Below are positions 86 through 25,795 of a stretch of DNA of 64,000 nucleotides, piece by piece (the stretch's first letter is position 1; the number at the start of each line of letters is the position of its first letter). The notes beneath the pieces were generated by a model that saw only the letters and a program-made list of their open reading frames with translations, searched no databases and was not told the DNA's origin. The position numbers and the translations under genes are program-made. This DNA is from Sipunculus nudus (Eukaryota > Annelida > Sipuncula > Golfingiida > Sipunculidae): assembly GCA_026874595.1 (NCBI GenBank), contig CM049307.1, positions 97,068,330 to 97,132,329 of the forward strand. Direction: 5' to 3'.

Positions 86-140
86 ATGAAGCTGACAGTG
101 CTGCTGGCTGTCCTTGTCAGCTATACGGCTGCTTCTACAG
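86..140 (+). CDS. Exon 1: start codon and signal peptide
   Basis: Encodes MKLTVLLAVLVSYTAAST plus the first base of residue 19. A lysine is followed by a hydrophobic run and small residues (AAST), a classic cleavable signal peptide. The ATG has an A at -3 (a favourable context). The donor is ACAG|gtgaga, phase 1. Bases 1-85 are probably 5' UTR or promoter-proximal sequence, but no promoter motif is evident. Confidence 0.8.
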
Positions 141-5794: not shown

Positions 5795-5862
<68 letters not shown>

Positions 5863-6532
5863 TGTGTGTGTGTGTGTGTGTGTGTGTCTGTTTACGTTGT
5901 CTCGCAGTGATTAACAATAAAATTGAACATCTTATGTACAATCCACGCCCCCTCAGTTCTCCCGACATTGCCTGAGTAACTTGACTGACAGGCATACATT
6001 AAAGCGCATTATGCATCAGGTAATCTGGATATTTCTAGGTCCCATCAGCTGTACACAGTAACACCGGCAAGACGTTATTATGTTTTCAAATTCCTAATTT
6101 ATATATAATGTATGAATTATATTGATTGTATAAATAATTGTATAATTATGTAATATTTAAATATTCATATAAACCATCGAATCAAAACTAACAATATACA
6201 TTGACATTATAATATTAACTATTTGATATACTTGGTATTTATGACAAATACATGCACAAAAATGATTTATTACATCGAAACACACTAGAATAAAGGACTG
6301 TGGGGATTCAACTTGATAGTCAGGGCGTAATACCGTCATGTCAAAACTTTATCTTGTAGACAAGCACCTGGTGTTGGTCAATGGGTGCATTAAAGCATTA
6401 ATCAAACATGATAAATAATGTAATATTCCAGGTAGTAACTGATTACATTGTCTGCCATAAGATAAATGTGCAAATGTGATTAAATTGTGATTAAGATTAT
6501 CTTGGACAGAAAGGTAAAAAAGGTCATTGTGT

Positions 6533-6584
<52 letters not shown>

Positions 6585-7801: not shown

Positions 7802-7837
<36 letters not shown>

Positions 7838-10800
7838 ACGGGGTGACACAAAATCGGACCGAACTTTCTTCGCCGGACTTGTGCGCCACCGACCTGGGTT
7901 CGACTCCCGGATCAGCCTAGGATTTTTCCCCTCAACAATTTGCCTTCGTAACAAAATGGGAGCTAGTCCGACGTGACGGTAAAACTTCGTGGCCCAGGGA
8001 ATAAGCTCACCAAAGTGTGACTCCTGGGATAATTAGTCTTGGTCTGATAGCAGAACACTCTTAAGAGGGGGTGTGTTACGGGGTGACATAAAAGCGGACC
8101 GAACTGGCAAAGCGGTTGGTTCGCCGGACTTGTGCGCCACCGACCTGGGATCGACTCCCGGATCGGTCCAGGAGTTTCCCCTCATTTATTTGTCTTCGTA
8201 ACAAATTATATATATATACAGTAACTTGGTTGATCAGGTTGATCTTTATTTCGTGTCTCTGTATCTGCTGATGCTGCTCTCTCTGGTTCAAGCTCTTAGT
8301 GTACCCATATCAGGCCACCTCCCGCCAACCTGAAATTTGAATGCAGATTACTAGCCAGGGGCCGATCCAGGGTTTAGGAAGGGGGGGGGGGGGTCCAATC
8401 CAGGAGGCGTAATGAAAAACCCAGGTCTGGAGAAAAGGGGGGGGGGGGGGCAGCAAAAAAATTAGTCTGAAACCCTTACAACAAGGTTGCGACGGCTGGA
8501 AAAAGGGGGAGGGGGGTCTTGACCAAGTGCCCCCCCCCCCCCCGATCCGCTTCTGCTACCGGGGTTAACTGTAAATCAATTTCAGATTACCCCATACGAT
8601 TTCAGATGAACCCTTCAAAATCTTTATGTTTATTTACTGTATATGTTATCATATATATTATCTGTCATGCGCTTTGGGGAAGTCGATAGAAATATAACTA
8701 ACTATACAATTAATATTTTTCCACAATCTTATATTTCATAGATTGATTCCTACTTTTTAACCTCGTATCTTCATCTTGATTATTTGAAATAATAAAGTAT
8801 AAGTTGAAAACATAAGAATGTGTCATTTAGTTGAATCAGGGAGCGGGTAATCTGACCGGTGCACGGGAGACCAGAAATTTAGTTCAGGACACCCCGAGGG
8901 AAATCTGAAATCGATTCCAAATCTCCCGGGGGGTAACCTGCAGTATTTCTCAGTGTATGGCTCGATTAAAGAACAGTTTGGGTATGGCGCCTTCCCAAAA
9001 ATATAAAGTCAAGACTGTCTTAATTGAATTTAATGCAAAACTCTCGACGTTCTTATTCAATATAAATTATATTAATAAAACACACAAAATTTCTGTACGG
9101 GTACTATATGGTAGTTATGTTAGATATTTGCTTCCACCTGCAACACAGGTGTAGGAAAGACCCATTCGAAAACCGTTACCCGCCTCATGATGTTATGATA
9201 AAAGTGATATGTGAATGCTGAGCGACCTGTAGATAGTCGTATACATGTAGTTACTAATACTGTGTCGTGACAAAGAGAAGGCAGGTGTACATGCCAGTAA
9301 CAAATATAGCGAACTAGTGTTATGATTTGTAATTTGATACAAATGAACGAAGTGCAGTATTCTTCATCAATATATTTCATATCGTAATAAAAGAAACCGC
9401 TTCCTATAACTTTTCACTTGAAAGAAAAGCTACAGGTGAAGTGTTAAGACATGTATTGTGCTGCAGAATTTCGGAACCTCTATTAGCAATGATGACATTT
9501 CTTCAGGTCAGTGCCGGATTTACTCAATAGCGGGAGTGACATACCCTTTTTTACATCACATTTGTATATGTAGAAAATGCTCTGAGAATCCATTTCTCAC
9601 TCATGATCACCTACTACAGTATGCAAGGCTAATTTTTTGAAAATAACAAATAAATTACTTTGCTTGCTGGAGATCATCTTCTTCATTACCTGAAACCCCT
9701 TTCACTGATATTAACCCATTTATTTGTTGTATTTTCGTTACTTGCTTGGATATAGTGATTCCTTCTAGGTATTCTTGAATCAATAAAACAATTACCCTAA
9801 ACACAAACAGGCACACTAAGTTTAACCAGTCAGCCTTGCAATGAGTTATATGATACTTTTGCTTTCTTAGTTATGAATATTCTTTTCCCATGTCCTGCTA
9901 TATTCGGTCTTTTTGTTTCCTAACATCAAGGCCACGGAGAGACTCCACTAGATTAAGACCTTGGAAATCTGTATAAACACAGGCTTACTGTTTGCTCTAC
10001 CTGTGCAATAAAAAATATTTTATATAAACATCTCCGAATTAAAACAACGGACGAATTCGAACACTCCTCTTGTGATCCATGTTTTAAGGGAACAGTTCGC
10101 ATTCTACTTAAATGATTTACTATACTTATACATTAGCTGTGTATATCTTAATGGAAGAAAGACTTTACTCAGTTTGTAAAAATAATTAGCTATCTTTGGA
10201 ACACGGCTTTTCCAATGCTGCTGATTCAGAAGTTATTGTTGGAGTTTCAGTGTTGTGAAATACAATCGACTTCCACAAATATAAGAATACATCAACCTGT
10301 TTACAACAAATAAAGATTTCAGCGTCTGCTCCCGGTCTGTTATAACAACGCACCCGTTTTCTGTACCGGGATATATTCTTGGAGTGTTATTGAAGACTTC
10401 TGTGTTGTCTTGATATATATATAGGCTATTTTTACTGATTGTTTTTATTTTGCCCATGCTTGTGGGTGTCCTGAATGCTATGTAAACCGGCGGAATCATT
10501 GTTCAAATGAAATTTCTTTTATATACATATACAGCTGTGTTTCAGTTTTAAGGGTAGCCGTCCAAAATGGGCTTCCTTCAACGCTTGTAGCTGTACCAAA
10601 GCTCATTGTCATGTGTGGCATTAACGTTTTCAGAGTCATTTAAAGATTTTTTTTTTATTATTTTCAGGTACTCTCCTATACAACGCTGAGGCCTATCATG
10701 AGCGCCACCTGACGACTAACATCGTTACTAAAGACTTTCGGTCGTCCTCATCCAGCTACTTTCGGGCACATCCTGTCTTCCTCTCCTGTCTCCAGAAAAT

Positions 10801-13800
10801 CAAAAATAGACTCAACGCTGACGGAAAATCGGTGAGTGTGTTTGTTAGAAATTAAGATGACTCCAGAAATCTGCTTTCTTATGAATGCAAGATTCCATCA
10901 TTCACTTACTCGGTCCATAAGACTAGGTTCATTCTTGTAGAAGTTACTCTACATTTGTGAATATTCTTTGATGACATTCCTAAATCCAAACTATGTGCTT
11001 GATCCACATTAAATTGTAATCGATTCTTCATTTGCCTACACCCAAAATGCCCTGAAAATTTTATATTATACAAAAATATATATATAATTGCGAAATAAAA
11101 TGTATAGATAATTGATAACGTCATTTGTCAATACAGGTGAGTATCGTCAGCGGGTTTAAGACAGCAGCCGAGAGCAGTACACCTGCTTCCGTTCAGGACC
11201 AGTACGCGCGCTCAGGATGTGGCGCCACCTTGCGGCTAGCAGACGGCTCACCCGGAGAAGTCCGGGACATCGCCGAGGCAGCCATCAGCCAGTGTTCTCT
11301 CTTGTTCTCGGTGAGTGTATAAAACAATTTAAAATAAAGTGGAAAGATGATAAACTATTTATTTAATTAAATGTACACTGGATTTATTTTAATCATGATG
11401 AGATTGTTTAACAGCATGCCTAGTATTGCCTACGGAGTCCACTTGTCCCCGTCCCGTTGGCTCGTAGATCAAAAGGCAGCTACCATTTATGTTAAAAAAA
11501 TATATTCCTCAGATGTATTGTTTAAAACACCCACTATGATGCTTAAACATCTGACGTAGGTTCGTTTTCAGCTAGGAAATAAAATCCAATGCCATGCGAA
11601 ATTATGACAGTTGGTGAACCAGTCTGAGAATATACAAGTCCACTCCCCCTCCCCTCCCCCAGTGCTGTACGGAATTTCCACTCCTTTTTTCGAGGTTTTT
11701 TTTTTGTTTGTTTAAACGAGCACAAAGTCATCAGCAAAGGTGTTTAGCCTCGATTCGTTAACAAAATTCTTGATATTATAACACATACTAGACCATATTT
11801 TGTGTTGGTTATATCAACTATTACAATAACTGAAGCACATTTTTGTTTCTTTCTTGAAGTTTCAGCTTTCTGTCTGGACCTCCACATTTTCGGACTAACT
11901 CCTAAATCATGTAAAACATTTGATTGTTTGTTTTACTGAGGCCAAGCCAAAGTTTATAAACAAGATCCCCGAACCCGTAGTTAACTGATCATATATCTCA
12001 ATAAAATAAATTCTGTCTACGGATAGTAATGTTGGTTTACAGATGGAGATGCGAGACATTGGAATAGTGATACAGCAGAATTCAGTACATGTACACATGA
12101 CAGGACAGACGGACACGCGGCCTCTGTTCCAGTCAGACGGCTACACCGCCATGAACACGGCTCAGTTCCAGGCCTGGTGTCTGGATACTATCGACAGCTC
12201 TATTGGTGGGTGGAAGAGCATTACTAGAGAGTTAAGATTTTCATTGCGTAACTGATGTTTGAAAATTATTTTAAAGGCGAACATGAAGAAATAAAAATGT
12301 AAATAAATGCCATTTTCAATTAACATGTAAGAGAGTACATATAGTTTTACGTCATCAAATGGACAACAATGACGCCAGTGACATAATAGCTCACGTTCCT
12401 TGTACATACACGTGGCGTGCGTTATCGGTTCAAAGAGTTAGAAATAAAAAAGTCCTGATATTATTTCAAATGATGAGAGCTATATCTCCCATATCTTTCA
12501 ACTGATAAGTATCTGGTGTTCTTGCCCACTGTGTATTTTCAATCCGACACAGTATAGTCTTCTATCTCAAATTAAATACATGGATTTATATAACAATTAA
12601 CTACATTATTGACAGTAACATATCATGTAAATGCGTGTACGGTTTCATTTCTATCTGATGAATGAATTTGCAGACCCGGTCAGGACGATGGATTGTGACA
12701 GTTTTCCAGCTTTATCACCAGATGGCGACACTATTTATCCGGAGGGTGCGACCAATCCTGAATCTGTTGTCAGTTCACTTGACGAAAAAATCCAAAGAAA
12801 CCAGAATGACTTTAAAAGGTGCATATATTGTGTCGCTTAAAATCAATATTGATGTTATATGTGCTACACTGGATTATATATTAATAAAAATAAAAATACC
12901 AAGGAAATTCAAAATGAATAAATTTAGGTAATTAGACAAAATTTTGATAAAACTCTTGAATTATTGTGACTTAAAATAATAAACCTTTTTTTGTTATTTA
13001 ATTTTATAAATATGTTTTGCACCAGGCTGATTCAGTACATGGGGCGACAAATTGATTTTGACGACAGCGAATCTAGCTCCACCTGGTGTGGAAGCCAAGG
13101 CAATCCGTGCGTGGACTGTAAGGCTGGATACGTCGGCAGTGCTGCCTCAACCAGGTGAGTGTGTCAGTAATCATTCATCGACAGATGTCGCTCCACTCAG
13201 TTAATAACAGTATTCTTTTTGTTTAAATGCTAGATTGGTGCTTTCTCATAATACACTCCTAACATATTGCTAATAAATGCAAGGACATGGAAACTAGTCT
13301 ATTAGAAATGTTGAACCTATTTAATTTTTATCGACACCTGATTCAGCCACGCCCCTTTTTTATGTTGCTACGCAACAAATATTAAGTGATTTGGATGTGC
13401 TTCAAGTTTACAATAAATATTTTAATGTAAAGCAAAGTGAATACTTCCTAAACACAATTTTGGGCGCATGGGCAAGGACAGATAGAGAGGTTATTGTAGC
13501 TCATCAGATTAATTTTTAAATTCCTTTGATTACATTCAAAACTCTGCACGGTGTGTCTCCCGGTTACATTGGTGACCTCATTCATCAATACCAGCGAGCT
13601 CGTGCTTTACGCTCGGCTGACGCCTCCTCACTCCGGGTGTCTTCAAGTCGACTGATAACATGTGGCGACCGTGCCTTTTCATTAGCTGCGCCAACATTAT
13701 GGAACAATCTTCCTAGAGGTCTTAGTTACAGTTATAATCTCTCTACTTTAAAACTAAACAGAGAGAAAAATGTCTACTCACAATGACCGCTTTTTTAGAT

Positions 13801-14479
13801 TCTTATTTTAGTTTTTTGGTAAAATTCATATCTTGTGTACTTCTGTGAAGTTATTGTTACATGTCTTTATTATGTATCTATTAATATGTTATACTATGTA
13901 ATGCGCATCTGAGCAGTATCACACTGTAAAGTGCGCAATATAAATGTACATTAATAATAATAATAATACGTTGTTTCTCGCAAACGGATTTATTACAAAT
14001 TGCCTAATGAGCCATTTCAGTAAAAGTTAAATGCATTAAAGTTAAAATTAATAACGTGTTTAAAATATGGCATAATGAAAATGTTTGCGTGATTTAGATG
14101 CGCTGACCGTCAGATGGCGCCACGGCTGTACAACAATATTGTCATGCTGCAGAAACTGGTGACGGAGCACATCACAGGTGGTAAGTGCTGCCCTCTTATG
14201 GGAGGTTCTTTTTAAAGTATATTTTTCCTGATATAGTTAAATAAGGCCAATTACAAAGACTGAAAAAAAAAACAATTATATGAACAAAATCAATATTTTA
14301 TAGAGGGTGCGTTTTTGTCATTTTGTCTTTTTTATTCTTCCTCTCCTTCCGGTTCCGGTCTTTGGAACCTGTGTCGTGATCCATCAAGAGCGTTTTGAAG
14401 CAAGAATAATGAGTCTAAGAATCATCTAATGTTTAAATGAAGAAATACCCTTGTCTGATACGTATTTTGTTTTAACATT

Positions 14480-14551
<72 letters not shown>

Positions 14552-16389
14552 TTGTATTTAAATATGTATGGATATTCTCCAAAACAACAAAATACACTTA
14601 CTAATAATTAATGGGAAAGCCTGAAAATTAAGAAATGACATAAAATTTAAAAGGATTCAGAACTAAAGATTGCTCTTTCTTTGTTTCTAGTTTTCTGGTA
14701 CTTTAAACCATAGAGCTTTTATGTTAAATGTAACATATGTAAATCAGTGTCACTCAGTTTTGCTTCAATGACACGAATTATCTCTGGACGCTGGAAATGA
14801 ATGAGTAATCTCGGAACTAGATAAGCAGATGAAAAGGTAGATTTTAAGATTTATGGGTCCTCTTGAAGTGCAAACTGTTTAGAATGGCTAAAAAAAAAAA
14901 GGAAATACAAAAAATGAACGGCAGGTGACGTTGATGATCATCATAGGCGATATGTTTTACATTTCCTCTTCATTAGATTGGAACTGATCATCCAGTCTCA
15001 ACTGCTTCCTATTTTGACAAAATCAATGGTGGTATTAACAATTTTATTTAATTATCATGATAAAAAAAGTGGTACCGGGTACCAGTCTATCACATTAACG
15101 GATATGACGTTTACAGGGAAGCTTCACGTGAGAGAGGCGTGGGATGAAGGTCACTCTGCCGCCCCTGACGGTGACAGCCCGTCAGCTACGTCACTGCACT
15201 TCGAGGGTCGGGCGGCCGTGTTGAACGTCACCAAGCCAGGGGGTGCCACCGCTGACGACCTCGTGACACTCAGCTGGCTCTCAGCTTGCTCCGGAATGGA
15301 CTATGTCCAGCACAAAAGTTAGCATTATTTACCTGTAGAAAATTAATACAAATATTATTTTATGTCTAAACAAAGTAACTGAATATGTATGTAATTCTTG
15401 ACTTTGAACTAAGTTTTTTTGACTTTCTGATGAAAATATGGGTTATTTTTTTTCATATGATCGTGCAAACATATACATAACTTTACAACTGCATATAACA
15501 AAATAAACTTTCGCAAGAAAATAATCTAGAAGATAAGAGTGAATTCATGGCCAAGTATATATTAGATAGTATCTTGACCTTCGTTAGAGATTTTTTTGGG
15601 AAAACATTTCCATTTACAAATCTCCATTTTTTCTCGACTTTAACTTGCAATAGACAAAATGATCGCAGAAAAATATATGCTTTGTAATATTCATAAATAT
15701 GTTTATATATTATTTTATTTGTCATTTCTGCAGCTGATCATATATACGTAGCCGTCAAGAAGCAAGCCGAGTTGATTCCAAGAGCGACCCAGTTTGAGGG
15801 GGCGGAGCTTCTAGAGGTGGAACCGCCCACTTCCAAGCAAGAGACGTACCGATTGGTCGGAGCGACTCCGGAGGACCACCCACTGCATGACAGCGCTAAT
15901 ATGGTATTTATTCACACTTGAGTGGCACTCATGTGTAAATAGTACATTCTCCTGCACGTATATAACTCTATTGAATCATGCTGAGTCACATGCCTGAGGT
16001 TTTAGTTATAATATAGTATTATTTTTTTTTGGTTAATATCATACTCCATTTTATGCATACTAGAAACAAATATTCGTCACCATTTTTACAATTAATGTAA
16101 GAAATAAAAGCGAAGTGAAACACTTTCTGTAAAAAATCTTCATAAAGTTAATATCGATCTGTAATAGCGCTGACGTTAAAAGTTCTGCATGATATGTTTT
16201 AACACTTACGTGTACGTGTATACATTAATCTTAAAAAAGTATACTTTCGTCTTTTCTGAAAAAAAACTTTATAATTTCTACAAAAAAAACTCCAAATTAA
16301 CACAGACCGATTTCTTCAAAGTTTCGTTTCCACCTTTCGTTTCGCCATTGTGAAATATATGGCCCTATCTATCTATCTATCTATCTATC

Positions 16390-16458
<69 letters not shown>

Positions 16459-19011
16459 ATATATATTCTATTTAAAACGAGATTGTTTAATACAATAAAA
16501 AGTAGATTTATAATTTCATAATTTCACCATTTAAAGTGTATATGTATAAATGAAATCTTTCCAGGATGGTTTGAAACTTGGCGAGCATGCCACGGTAGGC
16601 ATGTTCCGATCACGTGACCAAAATGTCCGGTACCTCAGGGTTGATCCAAAACTCACCAAATGTTTCGACGATGTCTACGCCCAGCAGAGAAGAGACAGTA
16701 AGCTTTAGTTAACCCGAATCGAATAACGTATATGCACTGACAATGTCTTTACATTACATTACAAATACAGGCAATATTTCACACAATTTCATCATAAAAT
16801 GTCGGTGTTTAAATGTTTATATTTAACTATAAATTTTTGGTTTGATTTTCTGTATATTATCGCTAATTTAACAGACATGTACCAGCGGACTAGATTGGTA
16901 CCCTACATTTAAAAGTTACTGTGCCGAATGTACACATGGACTGAACCCAGCCCATGCAGCATGGGGGCTGCAAGAGGGTGCCGCAGAGTTCTACGGGACA
17001 CAATCTGACTTTGCATGCATGCTTGATAACAGGGGCGGATATAGAACATGTATTTGGGAATCGGGGGTTGCACATGTGGTGGTGGGGTTTAGAGGAGGGT
17101 AACACCCACACATAGTGCAGAAACATTTTGAATATGCGGATCCTGAAAGGGAATGGGGGCGTCGAAACCCTCTCCTTGCTCAAACAACGACCTTTTGTTA
17201 GACAAATCTTATGCATGACTGGGGGTTTTGGGGGTCGAGACCCCCTCCCTGCTCTCAACAAACGACCTCTTTTTAGACAACTTTTATGCATGACACCCGT
17301 TGACCCTCCCTGCAAAAAAATCCTGGATCCGCGTCTGCACCATGACGTAAATCATGCACACAATCCCTAAAACCGCCCCTGTATAAGTTTGCTCTTATTC
17401 CAGAATCCAGAAATTAAATATCTGCTCGTGAAAATCATAGCATACATGTATACTTTTCCTAACATGAAAAAAATTGCAATGTTTACAATAAGTTTCATTT
17501 TTATATACTTCCATTTGCAGGAACTTGTATTTGGAAAGAGGTCTATATTCAAAGGATATTGTTTCTGAATTTTACATGAGACTGCTAGGAAACTTGAGTT
17601 ACATGTTTCTATACAAAATGTCATTGCGTTAAATTGTTTGCAATAAATGTCACTTTTTTCACCTATTCGGAATTTTCATTTTTGCGGTGGCAGCTATTCA
17701 TAAATGAATAGAGTTCATAGAACTCATAAATGTCACACAAAGGGGCACTTCCCCTTCTCGTTATCTTGGCTTCGCACCTGCCTAGGGTTCCCTCATCATA
17801 GAAAACTGTTCTCCTACCTAAAATTCCATATATAATTCCTTTATAACTATAAAAAACCAAGTCGTAAGTCGTATCAAAGTATATATACGTCTAAGCATAA
17901 ATCCAAAATTATGGAGCATAATGATGAGAATATTGAACTCATTCGCCCTCGAGTTTAACTTTAGATACCTCGAGTTGCCAACTTACAGCGGGTCCTGTAT
18001 ACAGCATATACTCCCGTCAGATCATAGAAAGGAGCACGGCCACTTTAAGTATCAAACCATTGCCTGCATGAAACATTGTCTATAGGCTGTCTACAAAGTA
18101 AAATTCATAAAAATGATTTTGGGAAAAGAAATATTGTAGTAGCCGCCGCATACATTTACAGTATTAACCTGCATGTCACCTAGTTGCCAAGCATAGCTGG
18201 CCGATACATTCACTCTGCATGATCGCCTTAACAACCGAAAACCTCATGAATATTAATAGGAAATGGTGACCTCAGGCCATACTCATATTTGTCTTTTCAG
18301 CTCAGAAAAACGTGCGGGTAGTACGAGGTTACATGACACACTCAGAACAATCAAATCTGATCGACGCACGCGCAGGTAAACACAGCCTAGGCTTCGCCAT
18401 GCACATGAACTATCACCCAGCGCCAACGAACTCCAGCAAACTGCTCCCTCTTGCGGTGTCGGCCATCGACAAATGCGGACCAGCGTTCATGGACGAACGT
18501 CGTGGTATGGGGCTTGGTTTCTATGGCGACGGCGTTTATGTTGACATCCGAGAATCGTTTAACGTTTGGAAGGACGACACTTTCGACCTTGACCCCGACA
18601 CTGACCCAGAAGAGATGGAAGCAGAACTTAGGAACAGATACGACCTTGCCGTCCGTGAGGATCATATTTTTAATTTTCGGAAATGTAAAAATATAAAAGA
18701 TAAAATTAATTAGACTTTTGCGATTTCAAATAAACAGCATACAAATCCAAAAATATTTATTATATTCATGGGACTTCAACGCAAAATCTTATTGAGCACG
18801 GTTCCAGAAATTAGGCAAGAGGCAATATGTAAAGGATCAAATGAAAAATATGACATTTATGTGGCTTATTTTTGTTTTGAAAATATTTTGCGTACAAAAA
18901 TAATTATTAAGATTAACAATTAAGACATTGAAGGGCCATTGTCCTCTGAGCTATGACCCAAACCATAGTCAGCCTCTCTCTTATTTTGATATATCAATAT
19001 TGTTAATAATA

Positions 19012-19048: not shown

Positions 19049-22000
19049 TATAAATAAATAAGGAAACTACCAAATTAATAGCAGGTGTGTTTAATTTTTT
19101 TTTCTGCTAAGAAAATCGTGTGATTGACCCTGATGACCTTGATGAGGTATGTCGTCGGTCAGTTCCTCCACAGAGACAGTCCGTCCACTACCAGTACCAG
19201 CACACGCCGACCATACAGGCCCGGAGGAAGAGGAGGGCGGCCGGTCAAAACACGGACGAACAGTGTCAGCCTCAGAGCGATACCAAGTTCTGTAGAGAGA
19301 CCAAGAAACACAGGGACGCTGAGGTAGACACACACAAACACAAACACACGGGTACCGGAGAAAATATTAAGGAACTAGAAGTCACAAAAAAGTGTTTGCA
19401 TTCATTTATTCGGCCCATTCTTCCAGGTTCATTCGTGCCCTAGTTCCCAGCCCGTGACATAAGAGCTATCAACCCTCTTATCCTTACGTAGACTGAACAT
19501 TAAAGGCTTCCCCATGTTCTTTGAAAGGGTCAAAAATCTCACTTCTAACGCCTGAATGATACAGTAAATATGACATCACCATGACGTCACTCTGACGTGG
19601 TAAGTGACACAAGGGGAAATCTTTTGTTGTATCAGTTGTGACTGTATAGATCTCTAACATTCGCGTGTAATCCTCGGACTGGCAGTATGTTTCGGCTTAA
19701 CAATAACAACCATTCCTGATTCGGACAGATCTTTCGGTCATTTGATGATTAAACAGTTAATTGGTTATGTTGTTTTATTTTATCAATGTGAAAAACCCCA
19801 CAAGATTTATGCATGAGTGATTCTGATTTGATATACTTCACGTTTTCAGGTGTCGGTTATCTGGAATGAGCAGTTGAAGAGAAAGTTCCTGAACCGGGTG
19901 AAAGACAACGAGAACCAGATCAGGAGTGCCCTGGAGGGATGTTTCGGCGTCTGCGGGACTTGTCTTACAGGTAAACAGCATTATCTAAACATACCATATA
20001 TATATAGTATTGTACGGTAACGTGCATTTCTGTGATCTGATGCAGCGCCATCTGCATTCGACAAAGTTGACAAGTTTCGGGTATATTTTCATTTTTTTCT
20101 ATTAGAATATATAGCTTTGCAGGCGTTACGTGCCATGATAAGATCATAAGCTTCCAAGATCTCATTCCTCTATTTAATGAAACAATTTTGGGGGTTTTGG
20201 GGCTGGCAGTGGAACTATCTAACAAATTGTCTCAAAAATAACCTCTCCATTGCAGCAATTGTTTAGGCACTGAATGGATTTTAGACTTAACTTCAAACTT
20301 TCGTTAAATGTAAATTTTTATTGATGCATAACACAATAATATTTAACAAGTGACTCTTTACAAACATGCGTGAACTATTGCCTGACGTTTTTGAGGATAA
20401 CACATATTACTACATCTGTGTCCAATGTCGACAATGAAAAAATACCAAATGTCACTTGTACCGCTTTACAGTCTGGTCATGGCGCTGTTGTGGTTTCCCG
20501 TCACGTGACTGTCATGTGGTGTTTTAGGTTATTCATTAAATACTGAACAGACCTTCCACGCCCAACTAGTGACATCTATTGACGACGACTGATACTAAGT
20601 ATCTGAGTCAAATGAGATCGACAGTTGAGAAATGAGATCGTTTGTTTTCATATTGACAGCTTTAACAGATTCAACAGTATAACCTTACCATGTTACTATC
20701 CTATTTTCATTGATGGTGGCGCTGTAAAGATTGCGTCTTAGAACAAATATATTTGTACTTTTACAGACGATAAACGCTGATGGTCAGATACACAGAGTCA
20801 CAGACGCCTTTTGTAAAAAGGGCAGTCATATGGTAGACTACCAGGCCACCTTAGAAATATGAAACTGCTTTCATATTGATAAGAAGATACTAACTTTTGA
20901 TACTAACTTTTGACAGAACAAGAAAAACTGCATTACGTAAAATATTGTTATAGACTGGGAAGACCTCGATTGTGTGTATAGTCACAAGGTACTGAGGAAG
21001 TTTAAATTCATGATTAAAAGTGAACATCCGTTGTGTGGGAGAAGCGGATCCAAGGGGGAAGGTGTCCTCCTGCCTTTTTCATCCGCAGTAACCTTTTTTT
21101 CATGGACTTCGGGCAAATTTTTGCCGTCTAACCCCCCCCCCCCCTTTTCTAGACATGGGTACTCTTTTTTTCAGGCTTTGCAATTAGTCTGGGTTGGACC
21201 CCCCCCCCCCTCCCCTTTCCGAAATCCTGGATCGGCCCCTGAGTGGAGAAATCAGATGGCTATAACCTGAAAGATGGATACAGTCTATGAGCAAACCATG
21301 TAACTCCAGGGACTCTTTCATGCCCAGTGCAATGTGTCAATACTCAGGTTTCAGTCGTTAATCATTTGATTATATATATATTTTTTTAAATTGTGACATA
21401 TATCAGTTGTTTGACATCCAAATTTATCGTTGGTATCTTATCTTATCTATCTATCTTTAACGAAAACTGTTTCTCTTTTCCATTGAAAATATAAAATGAC
21501 TCGGTAGATATCGATCAAGCATGTGCAGTGGGCATGCTTGGATATAAGTCATGACAGTTCTCAAGAGCAAGTGCCTCGTTTACGGACGTCTGTCATAGTT
21601 GTGTAATGTTTTGTTTTGCATAATTAAGGAACATTAAAACAAAACAACCAGAGACTTTCAACCCGCTAATATCGCGGCAGTAATGGAGGAACCACAGTTT
21701 AACATTTTTTAAACAATTTTTTATTCAGGAATATGAATTCAGTAACCGGAGCATCTGCGAAGAGCACCAAGATTAAAATCCTACATATTTGTAAGCTTGT
21801 CCATTAGAATTATCCTGTAGTGTTTAGTACGGACCGACCGACCGACAGACAGACAGACAGACATGCGGCAAGATATAGAGAGCTAAATAATCGGAGAGAC
21901 AGCCAGACAGACAAACAGACACACAGGCAGCCGGACAGACAGACGGCTAGACAGAGAGCTACAAACCCTGAAAAGACGGCCAGACAGGCACACAGGCAGC

Positions 22001-22583: not shown

Positions 22584-25500
22584 TCAGTATTTTGAATTTG
22601 ATAATTATATTACAAATCGGGTTCATTTTTCAAAAAATATTATACATTTATGGATAATCTTTAGTTGTATCCTTTGGAAGTTTTTTTAATGGCCAGGTTT
22701 TGAAAATAGGTTGAGACAAGTCTGGGAAGGTGGGCCCGATGAACGTATGGCGAAAGGCCATATGTACGAAATACTAAATTTTCCAAATGAAGGAACATTT
22801 CTGGTGGACCCAAAAAGTTGATATTCCAACTCAACTATAATATAGGGATTTTTCAAGCGTCGGACGATTAGTATAAGCCCTCAGACACATCGCAAATGAA
22901 AGATAAAAGGGAGAAACCACTCTTGACCCAAATATTCATATAAAAATAACTAAACAAGCCCTATAAAGCTCTCCTTACGTGGAGGGTTGAATACGGATCC
23001 ATAAAAATTTATCGGTCATCTTGTTTACACAGAGAACTTCTAGAATAAACAACAGCGCTTCAAATGCACGTCTGTTCATTCTGTTTGCAGTTTTTGCGAT
23101 TACCATAGATAATCATGATAAAACCATATAGGACTCGATGGTATCTGTGTTTGTTTATTGTCCTGTCCATACAGATATGACGAATATACATAGGTTGTGT
23201 TGTCCGAATGGCCGCATATTAATGAATGGCTGAAAACACCTGAACTGCTTATTTCATAGCGAATAAAAAACTTGCTCCTACTTGTCAAGATTTTAAATGG
23301 CTTTATATATACTTTAATATTTGTTTTACCAGATTCTACCGAAGTCTAAATAAAAGTGTATTCTATAAGTCTTTGTTTCATCCAAGATTTTATATTCTGT
23401 GGTCTTTCCAGGCAGTTCAATATTGTAACTTTTCTTATGAATATTTAAAATGTATATTAAAAGCTGTCACAATGTGCGCTATACAGGTTTCGGTAACATG
23501 ATCTTATAAGATATCCAAAGTTTTAAATTTTTTAGTTCATCTTCAAAATTTTATATTTTATTTTATTTTTTCCCCAGGTTATGCATATTTAACCTTACAA
23601 GGATCTTTCTGAAAATGATTTGTTGTTAGTGGTCTTTATTTAATGAGGTACCTAAATACATGTCTTCATTAGGCTATTAATAACAATAAAACACTATTGC
23701 ATCTCAGTGCCGTCTTGTGTTCATTTAGTGAAACATAACGTTTGAGTAAGGCATTAAAACTAGATATTTCTTTTGTTCATTCTAATACATTTGAGTGGAT
23801 TGCCAACGAGAATACTTAACGTTTCACTGCGTTTAGCTTAAATTCAAAATTTTAAATCGATTGACGTTTTAATACTAGCAAAAATGGTAGTTACCGTAAA
23901 TAAAAATAATCTTGTTCAAAGGTACCCCTTTAAGTAAATAAATGATGTATAATTTTCTTTCCCACAGCTCCGTCCTTTAACAAACGTTACCGTCCTGACC
24001 CCAATAAAAGCCCCGAGGAGGAACTGTACTCTCTGAACGACAACCCGTCCCCCGTGTACGAACTCCTCAACCGGCTGTACGCCATGCACGCCAGAGGAGA
24101 GGTTAAGGTCTGGGTCAAGGACGAGGCAGAATTGAGCGTTCTGCGCTCTGCCCTGCAGGTGAGGTATTCAACACAGGCTGATCCCCGTTTAAAATCATTA
24201 CTTTTTTTTCTCGTTGTAATACCTCCAGTGGTGTGTTTATGTAGACATCTTTCATACTCAAACATTTTCTAGACCATGGATATCTTGAATATACTTTCTC
24301 AACAATTAGGAACTACTTCTTTCGATATATTTCACAAATATTGAAATAAAAGTTTATATTTACAGTATTGTTAAGTAACTTGGATATGTTTTCAAGAAAT
24401 TTTCCACTCTCTTCCTCGATTGTGACAAAAATTTAAAACTAAAACATTTCATTTGTATATCTGTTATAGAAAAGTTTTTAAAAGCCAATATCTTGATCCA
24501 TGTTTCTACTTTTATCTCTAAAAGCACAGGGTGAAGCATTTTACACGACTGCGTAGTTTTATATGGAGTTCTTTTAATTTCAGATTTGTTTTGGAAATAT
24601 TTCCTTCCTAGTTTTGTGGAGTTTAAAACATACATACCTTTCGTGACGACAGAGTAGGATATAAAATTCATAAATCTGAGTCAGCTGACAAATTTGCCTT
24701 TCCTCCTTCCCCTGTATATAGATGACATAAGCTTTTGTAACCGATTTTTCACTTTTGAAAAGAGAATGATATAAGTGGCACTGGTCAAATTTCCCGATAT
24801 ACGGTGAAACTTTATTTTCGATTTCATCATTTCATACATTTACATTATGGAATGAGTCATGAGGGCATGAGTCATCTGTTTAAAAAAATAGAAAATTAAC
24901 GTTTTATGTTGAATATCTTTGTTTTTTTTACATAAAAGTGGGGAGGGGGGGGGGGGGGGGAGGGGGAGAGACAGGGAGTGAGTGAGAATGTTTATGATTA
25001 ATAAACTATCTTAGTTTTAAAAAATAATAAGAAGAAATAAAAAAAACACAATACATTTTCCTATATTAACCATTTTCCTTTTAAATTGTTTAACAATTTT
25101 TCCTTCGTGTGGCAGGTGATCTTCGCGTACAACAAAGACGTGACCCACGTGACCATTCACGTAACCGACGAGAGTAAGCTGGATGCGGTGAATGACGGCT
25201 TGGAGAGTATGATCGCTGTGTGGACAAAAAACACGTGTACACGTCACAGTCGTGAGACCATCACTCCCTTCACCATAGACAAAATGCCTCCGGGTACGTA
25301 CCAGTATTATAAAAATATATCTTAGGATTCAGGACTTTTGCAGATTCAAGAGGCCAAATATGCAGGAATACGTTGCCGAACCAGTGGCGCCATATTTTAC
25401 TTGCAACGCCGATTTCTTGAAATACGACCCCAAAGCCGTCCACACAATAGACACTTTGTTGGTTTGAAAATGTTGGGCCATCTATTTCTTGAAACATGTT

Positions 25501-25795
25501 ACTTCACAATTTTCTTGAAGCATGACTATTACACACATATGATACATGTGCCCAAAGCCACTAAGTTTTTGCTTTTACTTTTTCCTGAAGCCAGATATTT
25601 TTTACGCAAGCGTCCGCGATGTAGTGACCTTCAATGTTACAGTTTTATTGGCATAAACTTTCCACCTATTACGTACAAATAATATTTCTTTCAGGTATCT
25701 CGAAGCGTTCGGCTGACGCTTGGGCCGCAAGGGAGGAATTCATTTTGAAGGAACACAACTGGGAGCAAAACTGGTTAAAGAACAGCTACAACTGA
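86..25795 (+). CDS. Secreted protein with three tandem Hedgehog/M15-peptidase-like (LAS-fold) domains, 18 exons, 949 aa
   Basis: Join 86-140, 4215-4307, 10668-10831, 11137-11310, 12043-12205, 12674-12818, 13026-13154, 14098-14180, 15117-15317, 15734-15903, 16565-16697, 18301-18654, 19112-19323, 19850-19970, 22136-22318, 23968-24158, 25116-25293, 25695-25795. Every junction is GT-AG, phases agree throughout, and the sum is 2850 nt. Residues 1-18 form a signal peptide. Domain 1 (about 70-185) has an SGF motif at 109-111 and VHVHM at 177-181. Domain 2 (308-412) has KLHVREAWDE at 337-346, SLHFEGRA at 361-368 and DHIYVAVKK at 404-412, closely resembling the Hedgehog signal domain. Domain 3 (about 480-595) has RGY at 512-514, KHSLGFAMHM at 530-539 and GLGFYGDGVYVDI at 574-586, resembling M15A peptidases. 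Zinc ligands are incomplete in all three, so binding or signalling is likelier than catalysis. R659-R663 is a furin-like site. The C-terminal part (664-949) is unrecognised. No Hint domain is present. The function and orthologue are unknown to me. Confidence 0.85.
141..4214 (+). other. Intron 1 (4.07 kb)
   Basis: AT-rich. It holds a (CT)n run at 173-206, a decayed MITE at about 1713-1901, and poly-TTA/TTC tracts at 3880-3965 and 4165-4200. A 156-codon open frame at 3253-3723 shows no recognisable protein and is treated as chance. Confidence 0.7.
1713..1901. mobile_element. Decayed MITE copy A
   Basis: The left end (cagtagc...cctgggggg) and right end (cgggatccgctcacag) are degenerate forms of the CAGGGGCGGATCC termini seen in better copies. 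The poly-G near the left end and poly-C toward the right end match the family layout. No clear target duplication remains. Confidence 0.5.
4215..4307 (+). CDS. Exon 2: N-terminal linker (residues 19-49)
   Basis: The acceptor follows a T-rich tract ending ttattcag, and the donor is ACAG|gtcagt. Phase 1 at both ends matches exons 1 and 3. It encodes a low-complexity acidic linker (TRFPSGEYLEPVDPTTIGGE...) with no recognised domain. The local GC is much higher than the flanking intron, which supports an exon. Confidence 0.75.
5797..5888. repeat. Compound microsatellite (TC)n(TA)n(TG)n
   Basis: Three dinucleotide runs follow one another without interruption. The apparent minus-strand ORF of TH and IY residues over it is an artefact. 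Confidence 0.95.
6165..6665. repeat. Duplicated segment in intron 2, copy 1
   Basis: It shares long diverged similarity with 7400-8300. Common anchors are ggtcaatgggtgc, gcattaatcaaacatgat, the aacacact stretch, the (TA)n run, and the closing ttgatttatttttcgt / ttgatctttatttcgt block. The offset is about 1.2 kb, rising after the TRIM element in copy 2. Confidence 0.65.
6535..6582. repeat. (TA)n microsatellite
   Basis: About 24 uninterrupted TA units lie within duplicated segment copy 1. Confidence 0.95.
7834..8203. mobile_element. TRIM-like element with tRNA-bearing terminal repeats
   Basis: Two direct repeats, 7834-7953 (120 bp) and 8074-8203 (130 bp), each begin TGTTACG and end CGTAACA, a perfect 7-bp inverted pair in the TG...CA form of LTRs. 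The 120-bp interior starts aaatgggagctagtcc, with TGG placed like a primer-binding site, and ends ttaagagggggtg, like a polypurine tract. Copy 1 lacks about 10 bases inside its tRNA-like part. Surrounding (TA)n prevents a clean target duplication. A dimer of some other tRNA-derived repeat is the alternative. Confidence 0.6.
8096..8169 (+). other. tRNA-like sequence inside the right terminal repeat
   Basis: The 74-nt segment begins GGACCGA and ends TCGGTCC, a perfect 7-bp acceptor-type stem. It contains an A-box-like TGGCAAAGCGGTTGG and a B-box-like GGATCGACTCC with a 5-bp T stem (CTGGG/CCCGG, one G-T). The anticodon stem does not pair properly, so it is a tRNA-derived relic rather than a working tRNA. 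The matching part of the left repeat (about 7856-7917) is more decayed. Confidence 0.6.
8356..8555. mobile_element. MITE copy B
   Basis: It begins CAGGGGCCGATCCAGG and ends GATCCGCTTCTG, imperfect inverted ends, with poly-G and poly-C runs between. It is flanked by CTAGC and CTACC, a 4-of-5 match for a 5-bp target duplication. It is non-coding. Confidence 0.7.
8560..8950. mobile_element. Fold-back (inverted-repeat) element, copy 1
   Basis: It is bounded by opposed motifs of the type ATTTCAGATTACCCC (left, near 8578-8594) and GGGTAATCTGA / GGGGGTAACCTG (right, near 8846 and 8930). The AT-rich interior includes a ctttggggaagt-like stretch and is shared with the copy at about 39125-39590. Confidence 0.65.
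10668..10831 (+). CDS. Exon 3: start of LAS-like domain 1
   Basis: Acceptor attttcag, donor TCG|gtgagt, phase 1 in and 0 out. It encodes residues 50-104. The segment YFRAHPVFLSCLQKIKNRL (80-98) is the amphipathic helix that precedes the SGY/SGF strand in M15-type domains. It lines up with YLRVDPKLTKCFDDVY of domain 3. Confidence 0.8.
11137..11310 (+). CDS. Exon 4: LAS-like domain 1, SGF strand and degenerate zinc motif
   Basis: Acceptor aatacag, donor TCG|gtgagt, phase 0/0. Residues 105-162. VSIVSGFKT (105-113) matches the VxVxSGYRS strand of M15A peptidases. The region that should hold HxxGxAxD reads YARSGCGATLRL (127-138), so the first His and the Asp ligand are missing. IAEAAISQCSLLF matches the helix LAVSAIDKCGPAF of domain 3. 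Confidence 0.8.
11311..12042 (+). other. Introns 4 and 5 (11311-12042, 12206-12673): nothing recognised
   Basis: These are AT-rich introns without a clear repeat or RNA gene. Intron 3 (10832-11136, 305 bp) is likewise plain. The coordinates given here cover intron 4; intron 5 is 12206-12673. Confidence 0.6.
12043..12205 (+). CDS. Exon 5: end of LAS-like domain 1 (VHVHM)
   Basis: Acceptor tttacag, donor ATTG|gtgggt, phase 0 in and 1 out. Residues 163-217. MRDIGIVIQQNSVHVHM matches the closing GxGxY...VHVDV strands of M15A peptidases, and the HVH pair (178, 180) that would supply the last zinc ligand is retained. After it comes a linker with one Trp-Cys. Confidence 0.8.
12674..12818 (+). CDS. 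Exon 6: inter-domain linker (residues 217-265)
   Basis: Acceptor tttgcag, donor AAAAG|gtgcat, phase 1 in and 2 out. The donor is weaker than its neighbours, but it is the only one that keeps phase with exon 7. It encodes an acidic, Ser/Asp-rich linker (DPVRTMDCDSFPALSPDGD...) and then a charged probable helix (SSLDEKIQRNQNDFKR). No domain is recognised. Confidence 0.75.
13026..13154 (+). CDS. Exon 7: cysteine-rich lead-in to the Hedgehog-like domain
   Basis: Acceptor gcaccag, donor CCAG|gtgagt, phase 2/2. Residues 265-308. It contains WCGSQGNPCVDCKAGYVG (285-302), a compact C-x6-C-x2-C cluster with an acidic DDSESS stretch before it. No counterpart in canonical Hedgehog proteins is obvious to me. 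Confidence 0.78.
13520..13970 (+). mobile_element. LINE (CR1/L2-like) 3' end: ORF2 C-terminus plus tail, in intron 7
   Basis: The frame at 13526-13786 reads TFKTLHGVSPGYIGDL, then RALRSAD, then GDRAFSLAAPTLWNNLPRG. This is the well-known C-terminal tail of ORF2 in CR1/L2-type non-LTR retrotransposons. It is followed by a 3' tail with gcgcaatataaatg and a short TAA repeat (about 13945-13968), the usual terminus for this group. It is truncated at its 5' end and lies in the host gene's sense orientation. Confidence 0.8.
14098..14180 (+). CDS. Exon 8: first helix of Hedgehog-like domain 2
   Basis: Acceptor gatttag, donor GGTG|gtaagt, phase 2 in and 1 out. Residues 308-336. RCADRQMAPRLYNNIVMLQ (308-326) corresponds to the RCKDKLNALAISVMN helix of Hedgehog signal domains, including the RC start and the spacing to the next strand. 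Confidence 0.82.
14181..15116 (+). other. Intron 8 with a (TAA)n microsatellite
   Basis: A clean (TAA)n run covers about 14481-14550. The rest is AT-rich with nothing recognised. Such a run often marks the tail of an old LINE or SINE, but no element body is visible upstream. Confidence 0.6.
15117..15317 (+). CDS. Exon 9: core of Hedgehog-like domain 2
   Basis: Acceptor tttacag, donor AAAA|gttagc (weak), phase 1/1. Residues 336-403. KLHVREAWDE (337-346) matches KLxVTEGWDE, and SLHFEGRA (361-368) matches the signature SLHYEGRA. The first zinc His is kept (H363). The Asp ligand (D148 in mouse SHH) is V370. Two of the acidic calcium ligands of this loop remain as E342 and D345; the third aligns with G347. 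Confidence 0.85.
15318..15733 (+). other. Introns 9 and 10: AT-rich, microsatellite at 16365-16465
   Basis: Intron 9 (15318-15733) shows nothing. Intron 10 (15904-16564) contains a (TATC)n run passing into (TA)n at about 16365-16465. No genes or elements are seen. Confidence 0.6.
15734..15903 (+). CDS. Exon 10: last strand of Hedgehog-like domain 2 and linker
   Basis: Acceptor ttctgcag, donor ATG|gtattt, phase 1 in and 0 out. Residues 403-459. DHIYVAVKK (404-412) matches AHIHCSVKA of Hedgehog, with the zinc ligand His183 replaced by Tyr407. No Cys-Phe autoprocessing site and no Hint domain follow; the chain continues as an acidic Pro-rich linker. Confidence 0.82.
16365..16465. repeat. (TATC)n/(TA)n microsatellite
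   Basis: A tetranucleotide run passes into a dinucleotide run with one ttta interruption, in intron 10. Confidence 0.95.
16565..16697 (+). CDS. Exon 11: start of LAS-like domain 3
   Basis: Acceptor tttccag, donor GACA|gtaagc, phase 0 in and 1 out. Residues 460-504. VRYLRVDPKLTKCFDDVYA (480-498) is the pre-strand helix of an M15A-type domain and resembles the equivalent part of domain 1, including one Cys at the same place. Confidence 0.8.
16698..18300 (+). other. Intron 11 with a long MITE relative
   Basis: The intron contains the MITE-like element at 17030-17381, described separately. The remainder (17400-18300) is AT-rich with no recognised element. Confidence 0.6.
17030..17381. mobile_element. 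Long member of the MITE family (copy C), possibly nested
   Basis: It starts CAGGGGCGGATATAG and ends CCGCCCCTG, flanked by GATAA and TATAA (4 of 5). Inside, a second terminus-like ctggatccgcgtctg at about 17322-17337 and a repeated block ending cttatgcatgac (near 17219 and 17294) suggest a longer variant or two nested copies. The open frames over it on both strands have no recognisable homology. Confidence 0.6.
18301..18654 (+). CDS. Exon 12: main body of M15A-like domain 3
   Basis: Acceptor cttttcag, donor GTCC|gtgagg, phase 1/1. Residues 504-622, the largest exon. VRVVRGYMTHSEQ (508-520) corresponds to VRVTSGYRSPEHN, KHSLGFAMHM (530-539) to the HxxGxAxD zinc motif with Asp replaced by H538, and GLGFYGDGVYVDI (574-586) to GxGYYxxxxVHVDV with the final His replaced by Y583. 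It ends in a very acidic stretch (DLDPDTDPEEME). The frame stays open past the donor to 18713, but only splicing joins it to exon 13. Confidence 0.82.
18655..19111 (+). other. Introns 12 and 13
   Basis: Intron 12 (18655-19111) has a (TA)n run at about 19013-19050. Intron 13 (19324-19849) shows nothing recognisable. Confidence 0.55.
19112..19323 (+). CDS. Exon 13: linker with furin-like site
   Basis: Acceptor tgctaag, donor GAG|gtagac, phase 1 in and 0 out. Residues 622-692. It contains ARRKRRAAG with R659-R663, a consensus proprotein-convertase site, and C673 and C682. An internal donor-like gtatgt about 35 bases into the exon also follows a GAG in phase 0. Use of it would remove the furin site in frame, so alternative splicing is possible. 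Confidence 0.72.
19850..19970 (+). CDS. Exon 14: charged helix and CxxxCxxC
   Basis: Acceptor gttttcag, donor ACAG|gtaaac, phase 0 in and 1 out. Residues 693-733. A charged amphipathic segment (NEQLKRKFLNRVKDNENQIR) is followed by CFGVCGTC (723-730), a probable disulphide knot or metal-binding turn. No family is recognised. Confidence 0.78.
21039..21241. mobile_element. MITE copy D
   Basis: It starts gagaagcggatcc and ends atcctggatcggcccctg. The interior has two poly-C runs and a cattagtc-like motif shared with copies E and F. It is flanked by TGTGG and AGTGG (4 of 5). Confidence 0.75.
21826..22080. repeat. Degenerate GACA/CAGA tract
   Basis: Irregular GACA, GACAGACA and AGACGGCC units occur over about 255 bp, in roughly 70-bp blocks (agagagctacaaaccctgaa and caaagatctaaaacccgacg open similar blocks). 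The tract is non-coding. Confidence 0.8.
22136..22318 (+). CDS. Exon 15: C-terminal cysteine region
   Basis: Acceptor atttaaag, donor ATTG|gtaggt, phase 1/1. Residues 733-794. It is rich in Trp and Cys (C743, W749, W752, C777, C783) and has an NIT glycosylation sequon at 760-762, consistent with a secreted protein. No family is recognised. Confidence 0.8.
22319..23967 (+). other. Intron 15 with a (TA)n run
   Basis: A (TA)n microsatellite lies at about 22507-22577. No other element, exon or RNA gene is recognised in this AT-rich intron. Confidence 0.55.
23968..24158 (+). CDS. Exon 16: C-terminal alpha/beta segment
   Basis: Acceptor cccacag, donor CAG|gtgagg, phase 1 in and 0 out. Residues 794-857. 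The predicted order is helix (SPVYELLNRLYAMHARG), strand (VKVWV), helix (DEAELSVLRSALQ). With exon 17 this resembles a shrunken alpha/beta domain. Confidence 0.8.
24159..25115 (+). other. Introns 16 and 17
   Basis: Intron 16 (24159-25115) has a G-rich tract around 24940-24970. Intron 17 (25294-25694) shows nothing recognised. Confidence 0.55.
25116..25293 (+). CDS. Exon 17: C-terminal alpha/beta segment, continued
   Basis: Acceptor gtggcag, donor CCGG|gtacgt, phase 0 in and 1 out. Residues 858-917. It contains the strand THVTIHVTDE and then a helix (KLDAVNDGLESMIAVW). The strand recalls the closing strand of LAS domains but lacks any paired zinc motif upstream, so I do not assign it. Confidence 0.8.
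25695..25795 (+). CDS. Exon 18: C-terminus and stop
   Basis: Acceptor ctttcag, phase 1 in. Residues 917-949, ending in KNSYN and TGA at 25793-25795. It contains SKRSADAW (a possible dibasic cut) and a hydrophilic Trp-containing tail with no membrane anchor, so the product is likely released rather than tethered. Confidence 0.82.

What the first reader, a model, noticed from the sequence alone, without database searches (positions are those of the whole stretch)
10668..18654. Three tandem Hedgehog/M15 (LAS-fold) domains in one secreted animal protein
Seen: once the exons are joined, three segments share the same order of elements: a helix, then VxVxSGF/RGY or KLHVREAW, then an HxxG-like motif, then a helix with a Cys, then a closing V(H/Y)V strand. 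The middle one carries unmistakable Hedgehog signatures (KLHVREAWDE, SLHFEGRA). The outer two look like M15A peptidases (GLGFYGDGVYVDI against GxGYYxxxxVHVDV). Known: Hedgehog signal domains and M15 peptidases share a fold. Inference: the gene holds both versions in one chain, which bears on how Hedgehog-type ligands arose or how they are bound or mimicked. I know of no named protein with this layout.
Basis: partly seen in the sequence, partly recalled or inferred. Interest (0 to 1): 0.88.

Follow-up and report, generated by a model that had tools for sequence, protein, structure and literature searches.

The report
Secreted protein with three Hedgehog-fold domains
An animal gene encodes what looks like a secreted protein carrying a divergent Hedgehog signalling domain between two domains related to bacterial cell-wall peptidases, all three apparently without a working metal site; it resembles the little-known 'Hedglet' proteins and may show what else the Hedgehog fold is used for.

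Summary
A copy on C13, 200 of 735 aligned positions identical, keeps the order of parts. The middle domain is an HH_signal homologue (43.8 bits, cut-off 22.1). The outer two match a phage M15_3 profile better than any of 5000 composition shuffles (13.5 and 13.7 bits), but lie below Pfam's cut-offs, and two AlphaFold models were of low confidence and do not decide the fold. The C13 copy's first domain looks Hedgehog-like instead. By alignment no domain keeps more than one of three zinc ligands, and no Hint domain was found, so this is neither a canonical Hedgehog nor a likely peptidase. Best reading: a secreted pseudopeptidase array that works by binding; the function is inferred. Nearest name: 'Hedglet' (PMC8052667), Hh-like domains without catalytic residues in molluscs, echinoderms and cephalochordates. 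Its sequences could not be compared; the passages I read do not mention three domains.

The parts
86..140 (+). exon 1: start codon and signal peptide MKLTVLLAVLVSYTAAST (inferred)
   Evidence: of the 4 hydrophobic candidates printed for 1-10668, the only one followed by a GTRAG donor; phase 1 fits exon 2. No transcript, no counterpart found in the C13 copy
10668..10831 (+). exon 2: N-terminal stretch and first helix of LAS1
   Evidence: GT-AG, in phase
11137..11310 (+). exon 3: LAS1 from VSIVSGF
12043..12205 (+). exon 4: end of LAS1 (SVHVHM) and linker
10757..12117 (+). LAS1 domain, residues 49-156 (over exons 2-4), M15_3-like
   Evidence: M15_3 profile 13.5 bits, 0/5000 shuffles; no M15 or Hedgehog family match in Pfam or PHROGs; coordinates worked out
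12674..12818 (+). exon 5: linker and N-terminal part of the Hedgehog-type domain
13026..13154 (+). exon 6: N-terminal Hedgehog-type part and a cysteine-bearing insert
14098..14180 (+). exon 7: CADRQMAPRL helix
15117..15317 (+). exon 8: KLHVREAWDE and SLHFEGRA
15734..15903 (+). exon 9: closing strand DHIYVAVK and linker
14099..15774 (+). LAS2 core, residues 278-385 (over exons 7-9), HH_signal
   Evidence: Pfam PF01085 E=3e-11, 43.8 bits; hhalign 99
16565..16697 (+). exon 10: first helix of LAS3
18301..18654 (+). exon 11: most of LAS3
16598..18569 (+). LAS3 domain, residues 440-562 (over exons 10-11), M15_3-like
   Evidence: M15_3 profile 13.7 bits, 0/5000; one phage M15 alone 6.2 bits, 3/5000; NCBIfam vanXY E=0.011; no Pfam match. 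C13 copy's LAS3: phrog_894 E=5.1e-5
19112..19323 (+). exon 12: linker with RRKRR
19222..19236 (+). RRKRR, possible furin-type cleavage site (residues 628-632)
   Evidence: motif recalled, cleavage not tested; the C13 copy has RRRKR near its C-terminus instead
19850..19970 (+). exon 13: C-terminal module, cysteine part
23968..24158 (+). exon 14: C-terminal module
   Evidence: 44% identical to the C13 copy over query residues 687-747
25116..25293 (+). exon 15: C-terminal module
25695..25795 (+). exon 16: C-terminus EHNWEQNWLKNSYN and stop
   Evidence: C13 copy ends EEHNWELNWIMRDDI and stop

Best explanation
The gene makes a secreted protein in which three LAS-type domains stand in tandem (M15_3-like, Hedgehog-type, M15_3-like), followed by a separate C-terminal module. 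The three metal sites are degenerate, so I think it works as a non-catalytic binding protein outside the cell: a row of pseudopeptidase clefts that hold a partner, most likely glycan-bearing matrix or a protein that binds Hedgehog-fold domains. Shown here: an open gene structure, homology of the three domains by sequence, loss of zinc ligands by alignment, no Hint domain found, a second copy with the same order. Inferred: secretion, cleavage at RRKRR, and binding as the function.
For: Frame of 857 residues over 16 exons. LAS2: HH_signal 43.8 bits, C13 copy 61 bits, hhalign 99; all 25 PDB sequences matched are hedgehogs (E 0.00088-0.016). Window LAS1 and LAS3: M15_3 profile, 0 of 5000 shuffles each. 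C13 LAS3: phrog_894 E=5.1e-5, M15_3 profile 26.1 bits, 0/5000, one phage M15 alone 22.2 bits, 0/5000; that phage protein is Pfam M15_3 at 8.8e-24 and phrog_894 at 1.6e-41. Window LAS3 against C13 LAS3: 25.0 bits, 0/5000. C13 LAS1: Hh profile 11.7 bits and Hh+LAS2 profile 25.7 bits, 0/3000 each; Pfam HH_signal E=0.017, 15.3 bits, below the cut-off. Zinc ligands read by me off the alignments, where H/D/H is needed: window LAS1 A/T/H, LAS2 H/V/Y, LAS3 H/H/Y; C13 LAS1 Q/K/L, LAS2 H/R/E, LAS3 E/E/Y. No Hint in the 786-residue piece; the genome's one Hint match at E<=0.001 lies near its true Hedgehog on C12. First cysteine of the model is residue 59, so none at the predicted mature N-terminus.
Against: No structure supports the outer domains. 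Model 1 (C13 exon, 251 residues) had mean pLDDT 46.8; Foldseek's first row was Drosophila Hedgehog, at E=0.12, TM 0.21/0.34, rmsd 7.0, nothing at E<=0.001. Model 2 (C13 LAS3 alone) had pLDDT 50.5 and no Hedgehog or M15 chain in the 50 rows shown. Window LAS1 is not found by Pfam (only Glyco_hydro_68 at 0.05), PHROGs, the Hedgehog profiles (575 and 560 of 3000 shuffles as high) or C13 LAS1 (1653 of 5000). LAS3 is at chance or weak with Hedgehog profiles (751, 754, 119 and 26 of 3000; hhalign 0.2), and its PDB sequence hits are not LAS proteins; LAS1's profile has none. The M15_3 profile does not single out LAS2 (75 and 635 of 5000), and one negative control is not far from it (101 of 5000). Shuffles keep composition only. 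No transcript, protein, partner or expression data.
Confidence: 0.5

Rival explanations
1. It is a Hedgehog-pathway modulator: the Hedgehog-type domain mimics or competes with Hedgehog for its surface proteins (Ihog/CDO/HHIP/Patched types), the outer domains serving as spacers.
For: Middle domain is over the HH_signal cut-off. Of the calcium positions in the core alignment, window LAS2 keeps D96, E127 and D130 and has G for D132; E90/E91 (S/E) rest on a stretch scoring -0.1 bits. Drosophila Hedgehog also lacks the zinc motif (H-X6-T, H-X-Y) and binds Patched (PMC6027127, parts 1-2 of 4 read).
Against: No N-terminal cysteine and no Hint domain found; in Shh it is the N-terminal 22 residues, outside the zinc motif, that bind Patched1 (PMC8052667, passage), and here the domain is internal. 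In the C13 copy, of the four core calcium positions only D96 is kept.
Confidence: 0.2
2. It is an innate immune or symbiosis protein whose M15-like domains bind bacterial peptidoglycan stem peptides without cutting them.
For: Outer domains are nearest to M15_3 cell-wall enzymes; the assembly holds contigs with bacterial-looking genes.
Against: No direct evidence; only two copies were found in the genome (best candidates only), unlike the expanded recognition families I recall. I did not search print for this idea.
Confidence: 0.15
3. It is an active metallopeptidase with an unusual metal site.
For: LAS2 and LAS3 keep the first His; LAS1 keeps the last His.
Against: At most one of three zinc ligands per domain, and K at the position of Shh E177 in LAS2.
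Confidence: 0.04
4. Only the middle domain is a LAS fold; the outer matches are coincidences of short motifs.
For: Sub-threshold or absent in Pfam (M15_3 E=0.15, 12.7 bits against 23.2, for C13 LAS3; none for window LAS1 or LAS3), unsupported by the two low-confidence models, and LAS1 was tried on seven profiles before the last two rang.
Against: Long colinear alignments with 0 of 5000 shuffles for window LAS1 and LAS3 and C13 LAS3; phrog_894 E=5.1e-5 for C13 LAS3.
Confidence: 0.08

Closest known systems
Hedglet (Jagers and Roelink 2021, PMC8052667; passages and section 15 read)
   Same: A Hh-related domain that has lost catalytic residues, in animals that also have a true Hedgehog gene.
   Different: The passages read describe only domains of about 105 residues, in molluscs, echinoderms and cephalochordates, with no mention of three domains. 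Sequences are in a supplement I could not read, and the host of this window is not identified.
Hedgehog (HH_signal + Hint)
   Same: Middle domain over the Pfam HH_signal cut-off; ADRxM helix, WDE and SLHxEGR motifs.
   Different: No Hint domain found, zinc site lost, domain internal, cysteine-bearing insert before the ADR helix, two flanking LAS-type domains.
bacHh with a VanY domain (Flavivirga, Algibacter; L037-L039)
   Same: An M15-type domain (VanY, 7.9e-14) and HH_signal (3.7e-53) in one chain (L037).
   Different: Two domains, not three; Hedgehog-domain ligands kept; VanY rather than M15_3; Hedgehog domain last.
Peptidase_M15_3 / phage endolysins (phrog_894)
   Same: Outer domains align over much of the profile.
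   Different: Below Pfam's cut-off or not reported, zinc ligands lost, in an animal gene with introns.
Hedge-domain protein without Hog, Nematostella Nv 200640 (PMC2362128, passages read; that it is called Hedgling is recalled)
   Same: A Hedgehog domain without a Hog domain.
   Different: It continues into VWA and cadherin repeats; Pfam found none here.

Membership tests
Hedgehog ligand family | HH_signal domain over the Pfam cut-off | tested here: met
   43.8 bits against 22.1
Hedgehog ligand family | C-terminal Hint/Hog domain | tested here: not met
   none in the 786-residue piece at E up to 10 nor in the last 33 residues at E up to 1; the genome's one Hint match is on C12
Hedgehog ligand family | zinc motif H-X6-D, H-X-H and E177 | tested here: not met
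   LAS2 has H, V, Y and K; Drosophila Hedgehog also fails this (PMC6027127)
Hedgehog ligand family | N-terminal cysteine for palmitate after the signal peptide | tested here: not met
   first cysteine at residue 59 of the model; signal peptide by a hydropathy scan only
Hedglet | Hh-related domain with catalytic residues lost | tested here: met
Hedglet | the animal also has a true Hedgehog gene | tested here: met
   HH_signal on C12, 155.5 and 100.7 bits, Hint near it
Hedglet | sequence kinship with the published Hedglets | not testable with these tools
   their sequences are in a supplement; supplement look-ups were capped at 0
Hedglet | host is a mollusc, echinoderm or cephalochordate | tested here: inconclusive
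   the molluscan haemocyanin model did not ring, but it rang in no control either
Peptidase M15_3 (outer domains) | score over the Pfam cut-off | tested here: not met
   C13 LAS3 12.7 bits against 23.2; window LAS1 and LAS3 not reported
Peptidase M15_3 (outer domains) | homology detectable by profile | tested here: met
   0 of 5000 shuffles for window LAS1, window LAS3, C13 LAS3; C13 LAS1 not reported; phrog_894 5.1e-5 for C13 LAS3
Peptidase M15_3 (outer domains) | zinc ligands H, D, H | tested here: not met
   window LAS1 A/T/H, LAS3 H/H/Y
LAS fold (outer domains) | predicted structure superposes on SHH-N or an M15 peptidase | tested here: inconclusive
LAS1 was not modelled

The most novel reading that the evidence does not exclude
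Animals keep an old multi-LAS extracellular protein in which M15-type and Hedgehog-type domains already stood side by side, as they do in flavobacterial VanY-Hh proteins; Hedgehog's signal domain would then be one branch taken from such a tandem and joined to Hint, and the Hedglet line would be the branch that kept the tandem and lost catalysis.
Probability: 0.1. Interest if true: 0.85.

Novelty: new variant of a known kind. Interest (0 to 1): 0.55.

Why it matters
Hedgehog is usually thought of as a fold that animals use for a lipid-bearing signal. A secreted animal chain with a Hedgehog-type domain between two M15-like domains, all without their metal site, would show the fold reused as a binding array and would give a concrete object for asking what Hedglets do, what the fold's dead cleft binds, and in what order Hedgehog's parts were put together. 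It also gives a clear test: whether the array binds matrix glycans, peptidoglycan or Hedgehog-binding proteins.

Tried and rejected
Structure: two AlphaFold2 jobs on contiguous translations (the C13 copy's long exon with the window's exon 11; C13 LAS3 with part of exon 11), both of low confidence; the first gave 10 Hedgehog chains among 50 weak Foldseek rows, the second none. I did not submit spliced proteins, since the tool asks for proteins that the DNA gives letter for letter; so LAS1 and LAS2 were not modelled whole.

Comparisons that failed or stayed weak: LAS1 against the Hedgehog/bacHh alignment (probability 2.3), LAS3 against the same (0.2), LAS3 against VanY (4.5, 18 columns), LAS1 against LAS2 (31.6, P=5e-4, suggestive only). 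Window LAS1 was tried on seven profiles: 575/3000, 560/3000, 1653/5000, 46/5000, 471/5000, then 6/5000 with one phage M15 and 0/5000 with the M15_3 profile. PHROGs gave nothing for either LAS1 and only an unknown family at 0.14 for window LAS3; NCBIfam nothing for C13 LAS1 and LAS3.

A tree of 16 rows puts C13 LAS1 and both LAS2 with animal Hedgehog and the flavobacterial proteins rather than with the Kiritimatiellia and Verrucomicrobia ones (97/100), but with long branches that the program warns about; window LAS1 was not in it; I draw no origin from it. Frames upstream of the C13 copy had no convincing counterpart in the window. Naming the host by haemocyanin or COX1 failed.

Papers: searches; 'hedglet' occurs in one paper of the library. 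PMC6027127: parts 1-2 of 4 read. PMC8052667: passages and section 15. PMC9695228, PMC11266112, PMC2362128: passages. I saw no description of three tandem domains there; most subscription papers are not in the library.

Full report
Gene. The window lies in an animal genome of 1.43 Gb held in 153 contigs. Exons joined by GT-AG junctions with consistent phase give an uninterrupted frame of 857 codons plus stop, from 86 to 25795 on the + strand. Exon 1, a signal peptide, is an inference: of the four hydrophobic candidates printed upstream it alone is followed by a GTRAG donor, and its phase fits. There is no transcript. A search of the genome with the protein gives 16 matches, 14 in the window and two on C13; the C13 copy used as query gives eight matches on C13 and one in the window. 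So two members were found; the search scores only its best candidates. Aligned end to end the two are identical at 200 of 735 aligned positions; in that alignment the LAS1 parts are visibly out of register, so the figure for LAS1 (19 of 80) means little. The C13 copy has the same order of domains, the same C-terminal module and a like C-terminus, which speaks for one gene rather than neighbours. In its model an exon between LAS3 and the C-terminal module was not found, and its N-terminus is not known.

Middle domain. Pfam HH_signal matches at E=3e-11, 43.8 bits, cut-off 22.1, and the C13 copy at 61 bits. The profile comparison with the genome's own Hedgehog and seven bacterial Hedgehog-like proteins gives probability 99 over 88 columns; the C-terminal module as control gives 0.3. 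In the PDB all 25 sequences matched are hedgehogs, E 0.00088 to 0.016. The domain holds the ADRxM helix, WDE and SLHxEGR, with a cysteine-bearing insert before the helix.

Outer domains. Pfam gives nothing over its cut-off. The C13 LAS3 matches phrog_894, an endolysin family, at 5.1e-5 over residues 1-122; a phage protein annotated peptidase M15 that matches the same part of phrog_894 is Pfam M15_3 at 8.8e-24. Window LAS3 reaches NCBIfam vanXY at 0.011, far below that model's cut-off. I then built an M15_3 profile from 60 sequences, kept out of 84 (the 80 loci and the four rows of A11) at under 75% identity. Window LAS1 scores 13.5 bits, window LAS3 13.7, C13 LAS3 26.1 and own Hedgehog 14.9, each with 0 of 5000 residue shuffles as high; window LAS2 3.0 (75/5000), C13 LAS2 0.0 (635/5000), C-terminal modules -0.5 (1262/5000) and 2.3 (101/5000); C13 LAS1 was not reported. 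C13 LAS1 instead matches Hedgehog profiles: 11.7 bits without and 25.7 bits with LAS2 in the profile, 0 of 3000 in both, and Pfam HH_signal at 0.017, below the cut-off. So the first domain differs between the copies in which relative it resembles; I read this as one LAS domain drifting, not as proof of two origins, but it is an inference. In the window an intron sits between what I take for the first helix and the first strand in each of the three domains, a small point for repeated units.

Structure. Both predictions were poor (mean pLDDT 46.8 and 50.5). In the first, 10 of the 50 rows shown were Hedgehog chains, led by Drosophila Hedgehog at E=0.12, with TM 0.21-0.34 and rmsd 6.5-7.7; part of that model is the end of LAS2, and the aligned range is not given. 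The second, LAS3 alone, had none in the 50 rows shown. LAS1 was not modelled.

Metal sites. In Sonic Hedgehog the zinc ligands are H141, D148 and H183, with E177 the putative catalytic residue (PMC6027127), and the calcium residues mutated in PMC8052667 are E90, E91, D96, E127, D130 and D132. Read by me off the alignments: window LAS1 A/T/H, LAS2 H/V/Y with K at 177, LAS3 H/H/Y; C13 LAS1 Q/K/L, LAS2 H/R/E, LAS3 E/E/Y. None keeps more than one ligand. Window LAS2 keeps D96, E127 and D130 and has G for D132; E90/E91 (S/E) rest on a stretch scoring -0.1 bits. C13 LAS2 keeps D96 only of the four core positions. Drosophila Hedgehog has a like loss (H-X6-T, H-X-Y, V at 177) and binds Patched (PMC6027127), so loss of zinc does not rule out binding roles.

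What it is not. No Hint domain was found in the chain; the genome's one Hint match lies near its true Hedgehog on C12. There is no cysteine at the predicted mature N-terminus. It is therefore not a canonical Hedgehog. The three Pfam M15_3 matches in the assembly lie on C69, C77 and C84, in the same number range as contigs with bacterial-looking COX1 genes; none is on C2 or C13.

Known kin. 'Hedglet' is the nearest name: one paper in the library uses it, saying that mollusc, echinoderm and cephalochordate Hedglets are less conserved, that catalytic residues are lost, and that all animals with Hedglet also have Hedgehog. I could not read its sequences, so membership is consistent but untested. 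Bacterial proteins with VanY and HH_signal in one chain exist, so a tandem of M15 and Hedgehog domains is not in itself new; three in one animal protein, two of them M15-like, is what I have not seen described in the papers and passages named above.

Verdict. A well-supported gene model with three LAS-type domains by sequence, the outer two still needing a structure; most likely a secreted, metal-free binding array (0.5). Novelty: a new variant of a known kind.

Noticed in passing
L037-L039 (Flavivirga, Algibacter): Bacterial proteins carry a VanY-like domain followed by a nearly complete Hedgehog signalling domain, 57-59% identical to this animal's Hedgehog over the matched part (Pfam on L037).
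   Followed up: partly
G000 contigs C60, C61, C62, C66, C72, C74, C75, C89, C123: Nine COX1 matches of 418.8-420.4 bits with open frames of 577-578 residues lie on eight high-numbered contigs (two on C89), a tenth of 398 bits on C123; the five read look bacterial, as if several strains of a bacterium were assembled with the animal.
   Followed up: partly
window 37130-38476, 40187-40682, 41412-42424, 57142-58419, 59985-61681, 63442-63957: Long tandem arrays with units of 78, 38, 342, 29, 20 and 39 bases downstream of the gene.
   Followed up: no
C13:69615976-69616251 and following: Upstream of the C13 copy are exon-like open frames with an RRKKR site and no Pfam family over its cut-off; whether they belong to the same gene is unknown.
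   Followed up: partly
window 13520-13786: An intron holds a stretch that resembles the end of a LINE-type retrotransposon protein (recalled likeness).
   Followed up: no
window 19850-25795 (residues 645-857): The C-terminal module is nearly as well conserved between the two copies (68 of 208 aligned positions) as the middle domain (37 of 102) and has no Pfam family over its cut-off.
   Followed up: partly
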